Positions 34,523 to 45,477 of a stretch of DNA of 64,000 nucleotides are shown in pieces. Within the stretch, counting starts at the first letter, position 1. The number at the start of each line of letters is the position of its first letter. The notes under the pieces were generated by a model that saw nothing but the letters and a program-made list of their open reading frames with translations, was not told the DNA's origin and made no database searches. Made by a program: the position numbers and the translations under genes. The stretch comes from Lawsonella clevelandensis (GTDB taxonomy: Bacteria; Actinomycetota; Actinomycetes; Mycobacteriales; Mycobacteriaceae): positions 556,192 through 620,191 of the forward strand of contig NZ_CP009312.1 of assembly GCF_001293125.1 (NCBI RefSeq), written 5' to 3'.

Positions 34523-36400
<1,878 letters not shown>

Positions 36401-36554
36401 ACCTACACCCTACTTGGTCGGAGTCCCTAGAGTCGCCTTGAGCTGACCTGTTGCCCGCTCTTTTTTACCACTGCTGTGGATTTCGGGAGATTCTGTGGCA
36501 TGTTTCCCTCAATCTCTACGTTTCTTGGGGGTGTTATTGACTAGGCTTAGGGAC

Positions 36555-37415
36555 GTGGCTACGAAATTGAAGAAACTAGTTTCTGATCTCTCTTACATTG
36601 GTCCGAAGCGCGTGATGCGCGGCGACCTGTCCGATGCCCATCTCGAGGGTGTCGTTTTCGCTCCGACGGGACGTACTTCGGTGCCTACTGTCATTGTTAT
36701 TCCTGACTGGTTAACCCCGGTGGGCGCGTACCACGAGTTGGCACGCCATCTTGCTTCGTGGGGTATGGCCTGTGTGGTGCCCAAGTTGAAGAACAATGGG
36801 CTGAATGATGCTGCTGATATGACTGAGCAAGTGGCGGCGTTGGTGCAGACCTTGCGAGGTGTGCAGTTGGGTAATGGCACAGCGCAGTTGGATGGCGACA
36901 AGGTAGCATTGTTGGGCCATGGTCTGGGTGGTGCTGTGGTGGCAGAAACTGCTGCTAAGGGTGTGCCGTTGAAGGCTGTGGTTGCCGCCTATCCAACTGA
37001 GGCGTCACCGTCTCCGCTGGAGTACACGGTTCGTGCCACAGTTCCTGCTTTGGTGATTACTCCGGAGTTCCCGCCGCTGTTGTCGGTTGATGTGTCGGAG
37101 GATTTTGCTCATTCCTGGGGCGCGTCTGTGGTGATGCGGAAGGTTCCGGGTTGTACTCGTATGGGTATGACGGGGAATAGCTTGCTGGAGCGTTTTGGTC
37201 TTTCGGAGACGAATGACAAGAAGCCTTTGCGCGCGCAGACGGCGCTGATGACCGGCTACCTGTGGTACCAGTTGACGGGCGAGAAGGATTTCAAGGGTTT
37301 TGCGGCTCTGGATTCTGACATCGCTGGGACTGAAGTGGTGCTGACGGAGCAGCAGGAGAATGATGACGCTGCTCCGAAGCGGTCGAAGCGTCCGTTCGCC
37401 CGGTTGGTTCGTTAG
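36555..37415 (+). CDS. Alpha/beta hydrolase, dienelactone-hydrolase-like
   Basis: The 286-residue protein is an alpha/beta hydrolase: strand VPTVIVIPDWLTPVGAYHELAR and a nucleophile elbow GHGLGG. The central residue of the elbow is Leu where Ser or Cys is expected, so the catalytic nucleophile may be missing or lie elsewhere. The C-terminus carries a Lys/Arg-rich tail (PKRSKRPFARLVR). I take GTG 36555 as start; a -10-like TAGGCT ends eight bases before it, so the message may be leaderless. An earlier ATG (36495) precedes this element. The gene is closed by a strong terminator. Function unknown. Confidence 0.72.
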   Translation: MATKLKKLVSDLSYIGPKRVMRGDLSDAHLEGVVFAPTGRTSVPTVIVIPDWLTPVGAYHELARHLASWGMACVVPKLKNNGLNDAADMTEQVAALVQTLRGVQLGNGTAQLDGDKVALLGHGLGGAVVAETAAKGVPLKAVVAAYPTEASPSPLEYTVRATVPALVITPEFPPLLSVDVSEDFAHSWGASVVMRKVPGCTRMGMTGNSLLERFGLSETNDKKPLRAQTALMTGYLWYQLTGEKDFKGFAALDSDIAGTEVVLTEQQENDDAAPKRSKRPFARLVR

Positions 37416-37539: not shown

Positions 37540-37758
37540 CTAGAGCTGATCTAGCATCTTCAGGGTCTCCGGTTCGAGCTCGATGTAGCCGGCTTTTGCA
37601 AGTTCCTTGAAGTTATGAAGGCACTCGATGATTTCTTCGGTTTCTTCTTCAGAGAATTCAAAGGGTTCATCCTCGCTGATTGGCCGAAAACAGCTTTCTA
37701 CATCGTCTTCGCTAATATTTTGATGAACTTTCCGCTGGGGTTGATCGAAGAGCGACAT
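37540..37758 (-). CDS. Small acidic protein, third gene of a putative type VII secretion cassette
   Basis: I do not recognise this 72-residue protein. It is very acidic (FEFSEEETEEIIECLH in the middle) and looks helical. The ATG at 37758 has GGAAGGTGG upstream and lies two bases after the stop of the 791-residue gene, so the two are co-translated. Possible roles are a chaperone or immunity partner of the large protein; that is inference from position, size and charge only. No membrane segment or signal peptide. Confidence 0.6.
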   Translation of the reverse strand: MSLFDQPQRKVHQNISEDDVESCFRPISEDEPFEFSEEETEEIIECLHNFKELAKAGYIELEPETLKMLDQL

Positions 37759-37760
37759 CG

Positions 37761-40136
37761 CTACCACCTTCCCGCATGAGAAACATCTGAGTGAGTAAAC
37801 ATGCTCTCTGGCGAGACAGATTGCGGAGCTGCGACAGCTTCAGCCGAGGTAGTCTCGACAGCTGCAGTTGCTGTCCTCGATAGCTTAGCTTTGACGCCAG
37901 GGCTGTCCTCATCTGCATCGGGAGATGGAACTTTCTCCTCAACGCTCGAGTTATCGTTTCCTTGAGTAGTCGCTTCGCTGTTGAGGTCCTTAGCAGGGTG
38001 CTGCGACGCTCCGTTCCCCTTGGATTCCGCACCTTTAGTATCGGAAGTGTGAGCCTCGTCGTGACAAGAGGAATCTCCTTCAGAATCGCTCGTGTGATTG
38101 TCCGAGGCATTGTTTCCACCCTGATGGAGTTGGGCATTATCCGAGTGTTCTGTCGTCACGTATTCATCGTCACCAGAACCAACGGTGATATCAGCATGTC
38201 CATCACTGGAAATGTCGATACTAACCTCACTTTCTATGCGGAGAGTCCAACTCGGCTTTGTATCATGATGTTCCTGAGAATCAGGTTGGTCTGGAGTTTC
38301 GTTGTCCGAACGTCCTTCGCCATCTGTGCCCATGTTGTGCTCATACGCTCCACTCATCCCTGCATCGAACGAGTGCTCATGTGATCCCGAATAGGCATAA
38401 CTTAAGTCATAGGGAGATCCAGGCATTGTCTGATGCCCGTAAGGAATCGGTGGGGGACTTGCCAGATCGCCGTAGAACCCTTGAGGAGTCGGCTGAGCAT
38501 ACGATGTGCCCACTCCAAACTGAGCGCCAGCTCCTACTCCACTCATTCCTGGATGTTCTCCAAGGAAAGCTTGCCAAAGCTGACTATGGACCATCTGAGC
38601 TCGTTGTAGCCCGGTTTGCAGATAGTTTCCTGCTGGTTGTTTAGCCGTGTGATAGGCATCTACCTGTTGGTTACCAGACTGGGAGTACTGGTCTTGCTGT
38701 TCAACACCAGTCTGAGTATTTGCGTGACGACCATCATCTGAGTATCCATAGACATTCTGATGGTTGGGAAAAGTCATCTCCTGTTGAACAGGTTGGGTAG
38801 TATGCCCGCTTCCATACTCGTAATGATGGTCATTTGAGGAAGTACGATAGTCATGCTCAACCTTTTTCATACCAGCTTGGCTATGGTGTGCACCTACCTC
38901 ACCAGCTTGGACTTCCACATGGGCATTACCTTTAGCTGAGTAGCTCTGACGCTTAGCGTTACCCGTAGAGCTGTGATCTCCCATCGACTCCTTATGGTTG
39001 TACCGTTTCTCAGTTTGAAGACCAGATTCTTGAGAACCCTTCTTCTCACTAGAGTGTTCATCCGGAAGTGCAGTGCACATCGTGCTTTGTTTCCTGTGCT
39101 TCGACTGTGACTCTTGCTTTTTTAATACCGGAGGTTGTTGTGCCTTAGGCTTTTCATCACGAAGGGAGCGCAGCTTTACAGGTTTTAGTTGGTGCCCAAG
39201 GTTAGCAGGAACTTTTTCACCACGGACTAGGCACTGAACAGTAATCTCCCAGATCCGATTAAGTTCGTTACCTGCATCATCAATAAGCTTCTTAATTGCC
39301 TCAACTGCCTCACGTGCAATTGAGTGGGATGCCTGCATATCATGAAGCGCTTTGGCACCCTCGCTCTTAGCTGCATTACACCCGCGTGCAATTCCCAGCG
39401 TCGCGTCCACCAACGTATCTAAGAGAACACTGGCTGGGTTGACTAAAAATGCAAGTTTTGAGCCTTTCTCAGCCTTCACCGCCTTAGCTCCAGCTTTTAG
39501 GGCACTACCTGCAGCTTTACCCGCAGTTTTTGCCCCTAGACCCGTTCCTCCACTGACGACTGTCGATGCAATATCACCAACTGCAGTGAGCCCCTGCTTC
39601 CCTACAGCGAGAACTCCGTCGCACAACATTCCAAGGATGTTATCAATTGCAACAGGCTTCTTCGTGACTGCGATTGTCATCGCTTGGTCAGACACAAATG
39701 CCATCAATTGCTGTGACGCGTTAAGTGCCGCAGAGAAGTTATGGTCTGCTACCTCATAGATGCTTTGCCGTTGATCAGTCTGTTTGACCGTCCTCCTAAG
39801 TGAAGAACGTGCCTCATCTGCAGCCGCACCCGACCATACATCTTTTGATTCCTTGATACTGACATCGACGGTTTCGCCAGCTGTTTTCCACGCAAGTAGG
39901 CGATTCTGATATGCAGCAATCAGCGTCTCAATCTTCGTAATGTCTAGCTCAAGAACGGTAAAGTCAGGTTGGTTTAGACTAGGGACAGCGGGGAGCAATC
40001 GCCCTCGGTACAACATGCCCGGAATGAAATTCATAGTCTCCCAGGCGAAACGGATATAGTGCTCTGAACTCGCCAGGATATAGGCTTCTTTAGTCTTAGC
40101 AATATACCCGTTATAGATGCCTTGTCCATTGCTCAT
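37761..40136 (-). CDS. Putative type VII secretion substrate, WXG-type N-terminus and long disordered tail
   Basis: The 791-residue protein begins with an extended segment, then a helix pair around DVWSGAAADEARSSLRRTVK (W101-S-G103) that resembles the WXG turn of ESX substrates. A helical region with a Gly/Ala-rich hydrophobic stretch (SGGTGLGAKTAGKAAGSALK) reaches about residue 320. From about 335 to the end the sequence is low-complexity and polar, rich in His, Ser, Gln, Asp and Gly, with no recognised enzymatic domain. There is no Sec signal. It follows the EspC-like gene by two bases and precedes the acidic gene by two, forming an operon. The stretch is more AT-rich than flanking housekeeping genes, which suggests later acquisition. 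The secretion assignment is inferred. Confidence 0.6.
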   Translation of the reverse strand: MSNGQGIYNGYIAKTKEAYILASSEHYIRFAWETMNFIPGMLYRGRLLPAVPSLNQPDFTVLELDITKIETLIAAYQNRLLAWKTAGETVDVSIKESKDVWSGAAADEARSSLRRTVKQTDQRQSIYEVADHNFSAALNASQQLMAFVSDQAMTIAVTKKPVAIDNILGMLCDGVLAVGKQGLTAVGDIASTVVSGGTGLGAKTAGKAAGSALKAGAKAVKAEKGSKLAFLVNPASVLLDTLVDATLGIARGCNAAKSEGAKALHDMQASHSIAREAVEAIKKLIDDAGNELNRIWEITVQCLVRGEKVPANLGHQLKPVKLRSLRDEKPKAQQPPVLKKQESQSKHRKQSTMCTALPDEHSSEKKGSQESGLQTEKRYNHKESMGDHSSTGNAKRQSYSAKGNAHVEVQAGEVGAHHSQAGMKKVEHDYRTSSNDHHYEYGSGHTTQPVQQEMTFPNHQNVYGYSDDGRHANTQTGVEQQDQYSQSGNQQVDAYHTAKQPAGNYLQTGLQRAQMVHSQLWQAFLGEHPGMSGVGAGAQFGVGTSYAQPTPQGFYGDLASPPPIPYGHQTMPGSPYDLSYAYSGSHEHSFDAGMSGAYEHNMGTDGEGRSDNETPDQPDSQEHHDTKPSWTLRIESEVSIDISSDGHADITVGSGDDEYVTTEHSDNAQLHQGGNNASDNHTSDSEGDSSCHDEAHTSDTKGAESKGNGASQHPAKDLNSEATTQGNDNSSVEEKVPSPDADEDSPGVKAKLSRTATAAVETTSAEAVAAPQSVSPESMFTHSDVSHAGRW

Positions 40137-40138
40137 GG

Positions 40139-40444
40139 TTACATACCAGCCTTACCGAGAGCGGCACGATGCTCTGCATCTTGACCTGAAAATGCTGCAA
40201 TATCAGCAACGATATGATCGGCTTTTACACGAATATTCTTATCTAACGACGTATCTTTATCGGTTTCACCAGCAGCCCAGTCGCCGAGAACACCCGTGAG
40301 GTTCTTTCGATGAGGGCCAAACATGGTGGAATCAATAAGGAGCTGATGAGACTGCATCTCAGAATCGCATCGAAGAGCAGCATCAGTGAGACGATCTGCA
40401 ATAGCCCTTAAGTCGATTGCATCAAGTGTGACTTCGTCAGGCAT
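40139..40444 (-). CDS. EspC/DUF2580-like small helical protein
   Basis: A 101-residue helical protein. Its start VTLDAIDLRAIADRLTDAAL and two long helices resemble the EspC/DUF2580 group, small ESX-associated proteins often encoded before larger substrates. The similarity is a pattern I see by eye and is not strong. ATG 40444 follows GGGAAG; an open frame upstream to 40528 is probably not coding. First gene of the three-gene cassette, separated from glmM by a terminator, so it needs its own promoter in 40445-40550. Confidence 0.55.
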   Translation of the reverse strand: MPDEVTLDAIDLRAIADRLTDAALRCDSEMQSHQLLIDSTMFGPHRKNLTGVLGDWAAGETDKDTSLDKNIRVKADHIVADIAAFSGQDAEHRAALGKAGM

Positions 40445-40550: not shown

Positions 40551-40588
40551 GCAAAAGGTGACGATGCTCTGCAGCATCGTCACCTTTC
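40551..40588 (-). terminator. Terminator after glmM
   Basis: A 14-bp perfect stem (40554-40567 with 40574-40587, arms AAAGGTGACGATGC and its complement) with a six-base loop is followed on the minus strand by TTTT. It separates glmM from the cassette downstream. Confidence 0.88.
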
Positions 40589-40600
40589 TCTACTGAAGGT

Positions 40601-41944
40601 CTACACAGACCCCACAATCTCGGCGAGGCGACCTGCCACCTGTTGAGCCTGTTCTTCCGTGGCAGCCTCCACCATGACACGTACCAGCTGTTCTGTTCCG
40701 GAGGCCCGCAACAGCACCCGCCCGGTCTCCCCCAGGTCATGCTCGGCTGCGAGTGTCGCTGCAACCACTGCGGGATCCGACGCCACCGCATCACGATCTG
40801 AGACAGCCACATTGATGAGTACCTGCGGCAGCACCGTCACCACGCTGGCGAGCTCTGCCAAACTCTGCCCGGTTGCCGCCATCCGGTCCATCAACTGCAG
40901 GCCAGTCAGCACGCCGTCACCAGTGGTCGCATAGGCGGGTAGCACAATATGCCCAGACTGTTCGCCGCCCAGACTGTAGTCTCCAGCACGCAGATCTTCC
41001 AGCACATACCGGTCTCCCACCGCTGTGCACCGCAGGTTAATACCTTCTTCTTTCATCGCCAGATGGAGCCCAAGATTGGACATTACGGTAGCCACTAGAG
41101 TGTCGTCGGCAAGTTCACCGCGCTCTTTCATCGCGATGGCCATGATTGCCATAATCTGATCGCCGTCTACCAGGTTGCCCTCTGCATCAATGGCTAGGCA
41201 GCGGTCAGCGTCTCCATCGTGGGCCAACCCGAGGTCCGCGCCGTGAGACAGCACTGCGTCGCGTAGGCTCTCCATGTGAGTGGAGCCGCAATTGTCGTTG
41301 ATATTGAGGCCATTGGGCTCATTGTGAAGTGCGATGACGGTTGCGCCAGCTCGCTCATAAGCTTCCGGAGCGGCATATGAGGCAGCCCCATTGGCAGCAT
41401 CAACAACAACCGTCAGACCACTCAAATGGTGGGTACGAGTGGAGAGAAGGTGCTCTAGGTAGGCTTCGTGCGCTTCTGTTTGTGCCTGGTTGATGCGCCC
41501 AATGTCACCCCCAGTCGGGGACGTCTTGTGTGTGGAGCCGAGACGCGCCTCGATCTCGTCTTCTAGCGCATCATCGAGTTTGTGGCCGCCCGCGGCAAAA
41601 AATTTGATGCCATTATCCGGCATAGGGTTATGCGAGGCCGAGATCATGACCCCAAAAGCGGCATCGCGTTGAGCTGTTTCGAAAGCTACAGCGGGGGTTG
41701 GTAACACCCCTAGGAGGTCGACGTCGACACCGCGGCTAGAGATACCCGCCGCCAATGCAGCCTCCAGCATTTCTCCCGAGATGCGCGGATCGCGCCCTAA
41801 CACGACACGGGGGTGTCCAGTACCATTCACCGCATGGGCGGCGAGCACTTCCGCAGCTGCCGCTCCCAGTTGGAGAGCGAGATGCGGGGTGAGGGTGTCG
41901 TTCGCGAGACCACGAACGCCGTCGGTACCGAAAAGTCGTGCCAT
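40601..41944 (-). CDS. glmM: Phosphoglucosamine mutase
   Basis: GlmM converts glucosamine-6-phosphate to glucosamine-1-phosphate. The active phosphoserine is Ser104 in [12 protein letters not shown], the Mg2+ loop is DGDADR, and the sugar-binding GEQSGH is conserved. The length of 447 is normal. A -10-like TATAAG (41963-41958) lies 14 bases before ATG 41944, with AAGGA as ribosome site, so glmM probably has its own promoter. Confidence 0.97.
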
Positions 41945-43442: not shown

Positions 43443-43736
43443 TTACATCCAGGAGGCGGCAGCGCGACGGTTGGTGTCGTTCATGGCATCGTTACCCTGG
43501 CCGACGATCACACCGATGCGGTCGAGAACCTGGTTGAGTTCTTCCTGTGCGCGATCCCACTTCTGCTGCTGGGCCTGGTAAGCATCAGCTGCTTCACCTT
43601 CCCAGGTCGACACCATGGGAGCAAGATAAGCTTTGAGGTCACCCAGGGCAGTGTTGAGGCGAGAAGCAGCCTGGGCGATGTCCATGCGGCTGACCTCGAT
43701 GGAAGCGAAGTCGTAACGAATGGTATCCACTTGCAT
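43443..43736 (-). CDS. esxT: ESX-4 WXG100 protein EsxT-like
   Basis: A 97-residue WXG100 protein, helical hairpin with WEG (W45-E-G47) in the turn. By position directly before rplM it corresponds to EsxT of M. tuberculosis ESX-4. It should pair with the EsxU-like protein encoded just upstream and be exported through the EccC channel. AAAGGAG touches the ATG at 43736, which is too close; the GTG at 43730 has ideal spacing and is probably used, giving 95 residues. Confidence 0.88.
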   Translation of the reverse strand: MQVDTIRYDFASIEVSRMDIAQAASRLNTALGDLKAYLAPMVSTWEGEAADAYQAQQQKWDRAQEELNQVLDRIGVIVGQGNDAMNDTNRRAAASWM

Positions 43737-43741
43737 CTCCT

Positions 43742-44041
43742 TTAGATGTTAAGGGTGTTGAGCTGAGCCAGGTGGTCATCCTGGGAAGCCTGGTAAGCAA
43801 CGCTGTTGGCACGGATGGTCTCGGCGATGCTGTTAAGGGACTCGTTGAGGTGCCGGCCTGCATCCTGCCAACGAACCATAAGCTGGTCGAACGCCATCTT
43901 GGCGGAACCCTGCCAGGCTGCATCCAGGGACCCCAGACGCATCTGCAGGCCATTCATCTCCTGCTGAACGTGCTGTGCGATATCAACAACATGATTGGCC
44001 GCAGTCGCCATAGTGTCAGTCTGCGTATTAAGAGCAACCAT
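43742..44041 (-). CDS. esxU: ESX-4 WXG100 protein EsxU-like
   Basis: A 99-residue WXG100 protein with WQG (W43-Q-G45) between two helices. ATG 44041 has AGGAG at good spacing; the frame extends 16 codons further upstream without support. It lies five bases before esxT, forming the heterodimer pair typical of type VII secretion. Corresponds to EsxU by order. Confidence 0.88.
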   Translation of the reverse strand: MVALNTQTDTMATAANHVVDIAQHVQQEMNGLQMRLGSLDAAWQGSAKMAFDQLMVRWQDAGRHLNESLNSIAETIRANSVAYQASQDDHLAQLNTLNI

Positions 44042-44160
44042 GTTCACTCCTTCAACTATTAGAAAGTGGTGTCCTAGCCACACCCTCAACGGCTGCGGCT
44101 ATATTGTCGTTTAATATGACGCCGCTAAGGGCAGCAGGGTTCCATCGGTTCGACAAAACT

Positions 44161-45477
44161 TTAAGAAACTCGAATTCCATTGAGAATTTCCTGGCAGAGC
44201 TTATGGGCCTTCTGCTCCGTCATGTCCTCACGCACCCGATACTGGCAGGCCAGTGAGTACGCATAGCGTTCCGTATAGAAGACCACCCAATCCGCCCAGG
44301 ACACGTCACCAGTAATTTCCCGGTAGCTCAGCGCCACCGACGGCACCCACCCATTAGTGGGCCACTGGTAGGTACTTACCCACGGCTTTATGGCGGCCGT
44401 CGGATCAGACAGATGGCGTTGCAGAGAATCCCGCAGGTGATGATCAGGATCCTGTTTCAACGTCAACAACATCCGTAGATCCGGTTCATTCACCGGGGAA
44501 ATAATCGTCCGCCATTGCTCATGGGTATTGAGATCCACGACCGGCGGGGAATCGTGCGACACCATCCATGCCCCCGGCAGCGCCAACATGCCTCCGGGGA
44601 AAGTAATCACCTGCGCCGGATCCACGGAGCGAATACCCTGCCGCCCATACGCATCCTCAGGACGTTTTTCGGTACCAAACGCCCCCGCCAGCACCATCGA
44701 TAGCATTGCTATTACCGTCATAATGATCACTGCGTAATCGGTGCGAGTTGGTTTCCGGAAACGCTTCTTCCGCAATGCTGCTTTGCGGGCGAGCAGTACA
44801 TCTCGCTGGTGTTCTGCATTGGCGCGCCACTTCCGCTCTTTGAAGATCACCCACATATCGGTGGGACTGAGGCGGTAGGAGACGACACCCGCGGCACGAA
44901 GGGTTTCACACGCCAGCTCGCACGCATGAGTTTCGAGACTGGGAGGACCGGTTAGCACCAGGACGTCACAGTCACGGCGCAGATCGTGCACCATTAGACG
45001 TGCGGTGGAGGCAATGGCCTGCGCCCACTCAATAGCTTGCCCTTGTTGGTCCGGTTCGTTCTCCTGCACCACAGGGGCGAACCCCATACCGGGGTAGAGA
45101 GTGGTGGAGAACCGCCGTGCATCGCGGGTCCTTACCAGTGTGAACGTAGCGTTCAGCTGCGTGCACTCGATAACGAGCAGGAATCGTGGGAGGCACTCGG
45201 CGGCATCAATCTTGACCCACTCGGTGGCTATCTGCCAGGCCGGGTAGACAAGCGTCTCTTGCTGGCACAGACGGGCCAAGGCGCGCCGTCGTGGTATCCC
45301 CCATGTACTGGGAGCAACCACCAGATGGTCCTCGTCAATAGGACCAGGGAAATACTCGTCAAGGGGCGAGTACCCGTGGTCGATGTTGATGGCATCGTTC
45401 ATCTCATCTGCAGTGAGGGTGAGGAACTGGTTGTTGCGAACAACTGTATTACCCCAAATACCTGTAAAAGTCGTCAT
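44161..45477 (-). CDS. Type VII secretion-associated protein, Rv3446c family
   Basis: The 438-residue protein lies between eccC and the esx pair, as Rv3446c does in M. tuberculosis. The N-terminal 210 residues look like a cytoplasmic actin-like or nucleotide-binding-like fold without clear motifs. One membrane helix (YAVIIMTVIAMLSMVLAGAFG) is near residue 255, and the rest is outside, including the family C-terminal domain. ATG 45477 overlaps the eccC stop (ATGA). ESX-4 loci often have it although its task is unknown; it may serve as a local accessory subunit. Confidence 0.82.
   Translation of the reverse strand: MTTFTGIWGNTVVRNNQFLTLTADEMNDAINIDHGYSPLDEYFPGPIDEDHLVVAPSTWGIPRRRALARLCQQETLVYPAWQIATEWVKIDAAECLPRFLLVIECTQLNATFTLVRTRDARRFSTTLYPGMGFAPVVQENEPDQQGQAIEWAQAIASTARLMVHDLRRDCDVLVLTGPPSLETHACELACETLRAAGVVSYRLSPTDMWVIFKERKWRANAEHQRDVLLARKAALRKKRFRKPTRTDYAVIIMTVIAMLSMVLAGAFGTEKRPEDAYGRQGIRSVDPAQVITFPGGMLALPGAWMVSHDSPPVVDLNTHEQWRTIISPVNEPDLRMLLTLKQDPDHHLRDSLQRHLSDPTAAIKPWVSTYQWPTNGWVPSVALSYREITGDVSWADWVVFYTERYAYSLACQYRVREDMTEQKAHKLCQEILNGIRVS

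What the first reader, a model, noticed from the sequence alone, without database searches (positions are those of the whole stretch)
37540..40444. Candidate new type VII secretion cassette between glmS and glmM
Three genes with two-base gaps encode an EspC-like helical protein, a 791-residue protein with a WSG turn and a 450-residue polar disordered tail, and an acidic 72-residue protein. The region is more AT-rich than the surroundings and only 3 kb from ESX-4. No toxin domain is visible. The tail may be a novel adhesin, biofilm or host-interaction module, and the acidic protein a chaperone or immunity factor.
Basis: partly seen in the sequence, partly recalled or inferred. Interest (0 to 1): 0.72.

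Follow-up and report, generated by a model that had tools for sequence, protein, structure and literature searches.

The report
Likely ESX-4-linked secreted protein pair
Next to its type VII secretion machine this bacterium carries a small helical protein and a large partner that look like a matched cargo pair for that machine; the same pair, very changed in sequence, sits in the same place in most relatives including mycobacteria and corynebacteria, which gives a testable answer to what this oldest version of the machine exports.

Summary
In detail: three minus-strand genes (101, 791 and 72 aa) with two-base gaps lie between glmM and glmS, 3 kb from a complete ESX-4, at 46-50% GC against about 58%. 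They are not a local novelty. A positionally conserved, fast-diverging pair follows glmM in 59 of 63 sampled ESX-positive genomes. Gene A is EspC/WXG100-like: named Mycolicibacter relatives pass Pfam's EspC cut-off, a family profile against the PDB puts WXG100 proteins in ranks 1-6, and the AlphaFold hairpin matches them. 94% of A proteins carry D/E in a C-terminal [Y/F/H/aliphatic]xxx[D/E] motif. Gene B carries WxG in a predicted hairpin turn, then a Pro/polar tail with a lineage-specific C-terminal peptide (AGPL, LAGDx, RKAGxW). Together they hold both halves of the T7SS signal. Six assessable genomes without EccB and EccC all lack B; one keeps an orphan A. Best reading: a secreted A:B heterodimer, probably exported by ESX-4, by synteny the Rv3440c-Rv3439c pair of M. 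tuberculosis. Secretion and the tail's role are not shown. The window proteins link to the family through a sister species, since they match no family model themselves.

The parts
40139..40444 (-). Gene A: 101-aa EspC/WXG100-like helical hairpin protein
40178..40192 (-). F85-S-G-Q-D89 of A: window version of the YxxxD/E-type C-terminal secretion motif
   Evidence: aligned acidic column present in 60 of 64 family A rows
37761..40136 (-). Gene B: 791-aa protein, WXG-like N-terminal helical domain plus polar tail
39663..39962 (-). B residues 59-158: predicted two-helix hairpin (WXG domain)
   Evidence: AlphaFold H59-100 and H104-158, block pLDDT about 61-87
39828..39836 (-). W101-S-G103 in the hairpin turn of B (WxGxAAxDxA)
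37764..39131 (-). B residues 336-791: low-hydrophobic polar tail, length and sequence hypervariable in the family
   Evidence: composition; relatives
38214..38255 (-). Short conserved tail segment PSWTLRIESEVSID, also in the sister species
   Evidence: E=0.008
37764..37775 (-). C-terminal peptide AGRW of B (Corynebacterium: RKAGxW; others: LAEAGPL, LALAGDx)
37540..37758 (-). Gene C: acidic 72-aa protein, conserved in the sister species
40553..40588 (-). Terminator-like hairpin between glmM and A

Best explanation
A and B form a heterodimeric type VII secretion substrate, most likely of the neighbouring ESX-4. A is an EspC-type WXG100-fold partner carrying the C-terminal YxxxD/E-type export motif (FSGQD here). 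B carries the complementary WxG hairpin at its N-terminus. The four-helix A:B complex would be recognised by EccC and exported folded, taking B's long polar tail into or beyond the envelope, where the conserved C-terminal peptide probably docks to a lineage-specific partner. Shown: gene order, conservation, fold of A (good confidence) and B's hairpin (moderate), both halves of the bipartite signal, and loss together with ESX. Inferred: the heterodimer, export by ESX-4, and the function of the tail. C is an operon partner of unknown role.
For: Synteny: rplM-rpsI-glmM-A-B-(C)-hydrolase-glmS recurs across genera. Family links: B members of different genera find each other at 1e-8 to 1e-24; Corynebacterium vs other A 91% and B 94% hhalign probability; B vs EsxT 88%, A vs EsxT 66%; reversed controls at most 4%. 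PF10824 EspC above cut-off in three of ten relatives tested; WXG100 models recognise 8-9 of 20 B members. PDB sequence search with the A profile: ranks 1-6 all WXG100 proteins. Fold of A: nearly all top rows WXG100, Z 8.6-8.9. Motif: acidic residue in 60/64 A rows, with Y, F or H at -4 in half and mostly an aliphatic residue in the rest. Co-loss: the six assessable genomes lacking EccB and EccC all lack B at glmM, while the three with EccB but no full-length EccC match keep it. Outgroup Actinomycetes without EsxU/T at glmM lack the pair. Literature: EsxT lacks YxxxD/E (PMC10117145) and further ESX-4 substrates are unidentified (PMC11791044).
Against: P0001 and P0002 match no Pfam family and no meaningful NCBIfam family themselves; the link runs through the sister species (family profile E: L036 A 7e-4, L036 B 4e-9; window A 0.16, window B 12). 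The B model is poor outside the hairpin (mean pLDDT 56). Helical hairpins match many folds at Z about 8. Dietzia and one further genus keep ESX-4, relocated, without a convincing B, so ESX-4 can work without the pair. Co-loss rests on two or three independent events. No secretome evidence exists here.
Confidence: 0.77

Rival explanations
1. Export-linked factor that stays inside: A:B is an adaptor or chaperone of ESX-4, or (as reported by yeast two-hybrid for Rv3439c/Ppr2) a regulator that binds the Rip1 PDZ domain, and is not itself exported.
For: Rv3439c, the gene at this position in M. tuberculosis by gene order (own knowledge), was found as Rip1 PDZ interactor Ppr2 (PMC6963305). The conserved C-terminal peptide would suit a docking ligand.
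Against: A has the export motif and B the WxG as in secreted pairs; the tail is hypervariable, unlike a chaperone.
Confidence: 0.12
2. Polymorphic toxin with immunity gene: B is an LXG/WXG-type toxin and C its immunity protein.
For: WXG domain plus variable C-terminal part plus small acidic gene is the usual layout (own knowledge).
Against: No toxin domain; the tail is low-complexity with a conserved, not exchanged, C-terminus; C is absent or unrelated in many genera.
Confidence: 0.05
3. Horizontally acquired AT-rich island inserted between glmM and glmS.
For: Low GC and GC3 in this genome.
Against: Same position in most genera, with GC about 0.60-0.76 elsewhere; sister species has it too.
Confidence: 0.04
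4. The three ORFs are chance or decayed frames.
For: None of the three matches a family model on its own.
Against: All three are conserved in the sister species at 22-28% identity.
Confidence: 0.01

Closest known systems
EspC-EspA (espACD) and EspF-EspE substrate pairs of ESX-1 (own knowledge of these pairs)
   Same: Small EspC-family partner plus a large WxG-bearing partner with a variable C-terminal region; partners in one operon
   Different: Linked to glmM/ESX-4 rather than ESX-1; B did not match the EspA_EspE model PF18879; distinct C-terminal peptides; the EspC-like gene comes first
EsxU-EsxT (ESX-4 WXG100 pair, window 43443-44089)
   Same: WXG100 fold, same locus
   Different: EsxU/T are single-domain proteins of about 100 aa; EsxT is reported to lack YxxxD/E (PMC10117145); B has a tail of up to about 450 residues
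Rv3440c-Rv3439c (Ppr2) of M. tuberculosis
   Same: Same position between glmM and glmS and similar sizes (own knowledge of gene order); named Mycolicibacter/Mycobacterium loci with the pair downstream of glmM belong to the families
   Different: M. tuberculosis itself was not retrieved here; the published lead is Rip1 PDZ binding (PMC6963305), not secretion
LXG effectors with Lap partners (T7SSb)
   Same: Small WXG100-like partner plus large protein with helical N-terminus; LapA4 was a weak PDB hit of the A profile
   Different: No toxin domain in B; actinobacterial ESX-4 context

Membership tests
T7SS_ESX_EspC (PF10824) | Match above Pfam's curated cut-off | tested here: inconclusive
   Met in relatives L130 (32.1 bits), L147 (24.9) and L098 (37.4) against cut-off 23.5; the window protein has no match
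WXG100/EspC superfamily | About 100 aa two-helix hairpin | tested here: met
   A: H9-32 and H44-100, pLDDT 81; top fold rows WXG100, Z 8.6-8.9
Type VII substrate pair | WxG in the hairpin turn of one partner | tested here: met
   W101-S-G103 between H59-100 and H104-158 in B; WxG present in most genera but missing in several
Type VII substrate pair | YxxxD/E motif at the C-terminus of the other partner | tested here: inconclusive
   Exact Y in 16 rows, F 9, H 5 of 60 with the acidic residue; the window has FSGQD
Type VII substrate pair | Secretion dependent on an ESX ATPase | not testable with these tools
   Needs the secretome of an eccC or eccD deletion strain
EspA_EspE (PF18879) | Match of B to the Pfam model | tested here: not met
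   No match at E up to 10 for the window protein or up to 0.1 for 20 relatives' N-terminal 330 residues
Polymorphic toxin/immunity | Recognisable toxin domain with exchangeable C-terminus | tested here: not met
   No toxin domain; conserved C-terminal peptides within lineages

The most novel reading that the evidence does not exclude
B is an export reporter: once ESX-4 carries A:B across the membrane, B's conserved C-terminal peptide binds the extracytoplasmic PDZ domain of the site-2 protease Rip1 (or a similar PDZ protease) and so feeds secretion status back to the sigma factor (SigM) that drives ESX-4, much as DegS/AlgW PDZ domains read envelope protein C-termini. Pieces: Rv3439c-Rip1 PDZ two-hybrid (PMC6963305), Rip1 cleaves the SigM anti-sigma factor (PMC10202637), SigM induces ESX-4 genes (PMC8593097), lineage-conserved C-terminal peptides.
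Probability: 0.08. Interest if true: 0.85.

Novelty: new member of a known kind. Interest (0 to 1): 0.56.

Why it matters
ESX-4 is regarded as the ancestral ESX system, yet beyond EsxU/EsxT its substrates are stated to be unidentified (PMC11791044), and EsxT lacks the usual YxxxD/E motif (PMC10117145). An old, glmM-linked EspC-like plus WxG pair that carries both halves of the signal and disappears with the machine is a direct candidate for the missing cargo, testable in harmless laboratory strains. It would also give a framework for Rv3440c-Rv3439c, known mainly as hypothetical genes and a two-hybrid hit.

Tried and rejected
Direct Pfam/NCBIfam scans of the three window proteins: nothing of use. 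A genome-contig scan with B's N-terminus: no relative. Matches of B in G014 and G136 are chance (not a gene of this kind there, or with stops inside). Iterating the B profile without limits absorbed EsxT/EsxU; this was taken only as a hint and repeated with B-only sets and reversed controls. Fold search with the B model: no WXG protein among the 50 listed rows, and the model is too poor outside the hairpin to say anything. Horizontal island rejected by synteny. Apparent exceptions to co-loss (G317, G337, G347) turned out to have EccB (and in G337 a split EccC). The SigM regulon papers that might list the pair are not held. Searches for papers on Lawsonella T7SS or on this pair as an ESX substrate found none.

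Full report
WHAT IS THERE. The window lies in a complete 1.86 Mb genome; size, GC and gene content suggest Lawsonella (my inference, not shown by a tool). Between glmM (40601-41944) and an alpha/beta hydrolase gene (36495-37415) next to glmS (34523-36400) there are three minus-strand genes with two-base gaps: A (101 aa), B (791 aa) and C (72 aa). ESX-4 follows beyond glmM, rpsI and rplM: two WXG100 genes, a 438-aa gene without Pfam match, EccC, EccD, MycP, EccB. A strong hairpin with a T run separates glmM from A. The cassette is AT-rich, also at third positions.

THE GENES ARE REAL AND FAST. The only other genome of the genus held (G001, L036) has the same three genes in the same order between glmM and the hydrolase/glmS. 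The proteins are only 22% (A), 28% (B, N-terminal part) and 26% (C) identical, against 79-80% for glmM and glmS. In that draft genome B is broken by a frame change at an A8 run; the other frame ends in SGGW, which resembles the window's AGRW.

THE PLACE IS CONSERVED ACROSS THE ORDER. Taking glmM in the other genera sampled, the stretch between glmM and the hydrolase/glmS mostly holds a gene of about 100 aa and one of 300-790 aa, overlapping by 4 bases or nearly so, often followed by a small third gene. B proteins of different genera find each other directly (E 1e-8 to 1e-24). By my count 59 of 63 ESX-positive genomes examined have B; the four without are one Dietzia (G004), two genomes of genus g13 (G013, which keeps A, and G059) and one of genus g3 (G033, L066). 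Named loci show the pair in Corynebacterium, Mycolicibacter, Mycobacterium sp., Gordonia, Tsukamurella, Rhodococcus, Williamsia and Kutzneria, and not in Dietzia, Streptomyces, Arthrobacter, Actinoplanes or Nocardioides (for Corynebacterium the profile was partly built from these loci). In one genus (g15, L049) the pair lies on the other side of rplM. From my own knowledge of the M. tuberculosis map (Rv3436c glmS, Rv3441c glmM) the positional counterparts are Rv3440c and Rv3439c; M. tuberculosis itself was not retrieved.

WHAT A IS. Mycolicibacter relatives of A and one other pass Pfam's cut-off for T7SS_ESX_EspC. A profile of the family (window first) searched against all PDB sequences puts six WXG100 proteins at ranks 1-6 over the full length (E 0.006-0.18). 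The AlphaFold model (pLDDT 81) is two helices, 9-32 and 44-100, and its best structural matches are EsxA/EsxB-type proteins (Z 8.6-8.9; unrelated hairpins follow closely, so the fold alone is weak evidence). Aligned A proteins share an acidic residue near the C-terminus in 60 of 64 rows (the window counted twice); four residues before it stand Y 16, L 10, F 9, V 8, I 7, H 5: the YxxxD/E signal in relaxed form. The window has FSGQD; Mycolicibacter and Mycobacterium have YGAAE and YGQAD.

WHAT B IS. WXG100 models recognise 8-9 of 20 B members. Profile-profile comparison gives B vs EsxT 88% and EsxU 69%, Corynebacterium B vs other B 94%; reversed alignments give at most 4%. The window model has a hairpin 59-100/104-158 with W101-S-G103 in the turn; the rest is low confidence. 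The tail is polar or Pro-rich and hypervariable, but its last residues are conserved within lineages: AGPL in 22 of 62 sequences outside Corynebacterium and the window's genus, LALAGDx in Gordonia/Williamsia types, [AST]GxW in 21 of 22 Corynebacterium sequences (0.01 expected from composition). Window B joins the family through L036 (window-L036 E 3e-8; L036-family E 4e-9); on its own it does not reach the family profile.

TEST BY CO-LOSS. EccC was sought in 361 genomes of the family; ten lacked a strong match. Three of these have EccB, one with a split EccC, and keep the pair. Seven have neither EccB nor EccC; the glmM region could be assessed in six (three of the Dietzia genus g4, one of g9, two of g23), and none has B there. 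G104 keeps an orphan A (E 2.5e-15); in G229 what follows glmM looks by eye like a B tail without its T7 domain. Ignoring kinship, 0/6 against 59/63 has a probability of about 2e-6 (hand calculation); realistically it is two or three events, since the Dietzia genomes examined lack B at glmM with or without ESX-4.

HOW IT WORKS. The pair supplies both halves of the bipartite signal reported as needed for export (WxG in one partner, YxxxD/E in the other; PMC10117145). The simplest mechanism is a heterodimer recognised by EccC4 and exported. What the tail does is open: the conserved ends and variable middle suggest a flexible spacer with a docking peptide. The reported binding of Rv3439c to the Rip1 PDZ domain (PMC6963305) allows a feedback reading, which I rate at 8%.

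VERDICT. A real, old and neglected cassette of a known kind.

Noticed in passing
L036:7224-7303: In the sister species B is interrupted by a frame change at an A8 run in a draft genome: assembly error or a slippage-prone tract.
   Followed up: partly
window 37540-40444: Third-position GC is strongly lowered in the cassette (0.35-0.53 against 0.61-0.74) in this genome, and the sister species' cassette is also AT-rich, although the pair is GC-rich in other genera: unexplained.
   Followed up: partly
L039, L076, L077, L162: In Dietzia ESX-4 lies away from glmM and the pair is gone from glmM.
   Followed up: partly
L049:10341-12541: In one genome of genus g15 (G015) the pair lies upstream of rplM instead of downstream of glmM.
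   Followed up: no
L054, L058, L075, L112: Two genera (g20, g24) have B proteins with a different C-terminal pattern (about LLxRAxxFGxxR); those of g24 also lack WxG.
   Followed up: no
window 44161-45477: 438-aa gene between the WXG100 pair and EccC has no Pfam match.
   Followed up: no
L117, L131, L138 and other Corynebacterium loci, third gene: In Corynebacterium the small third gene has its own conserved ends (FEEFxxQFRxRTxxRMxEFEKALAKAQ ... VQSVLRRG), unrelated to the window's gene C as far as visible.
   Followed up: no
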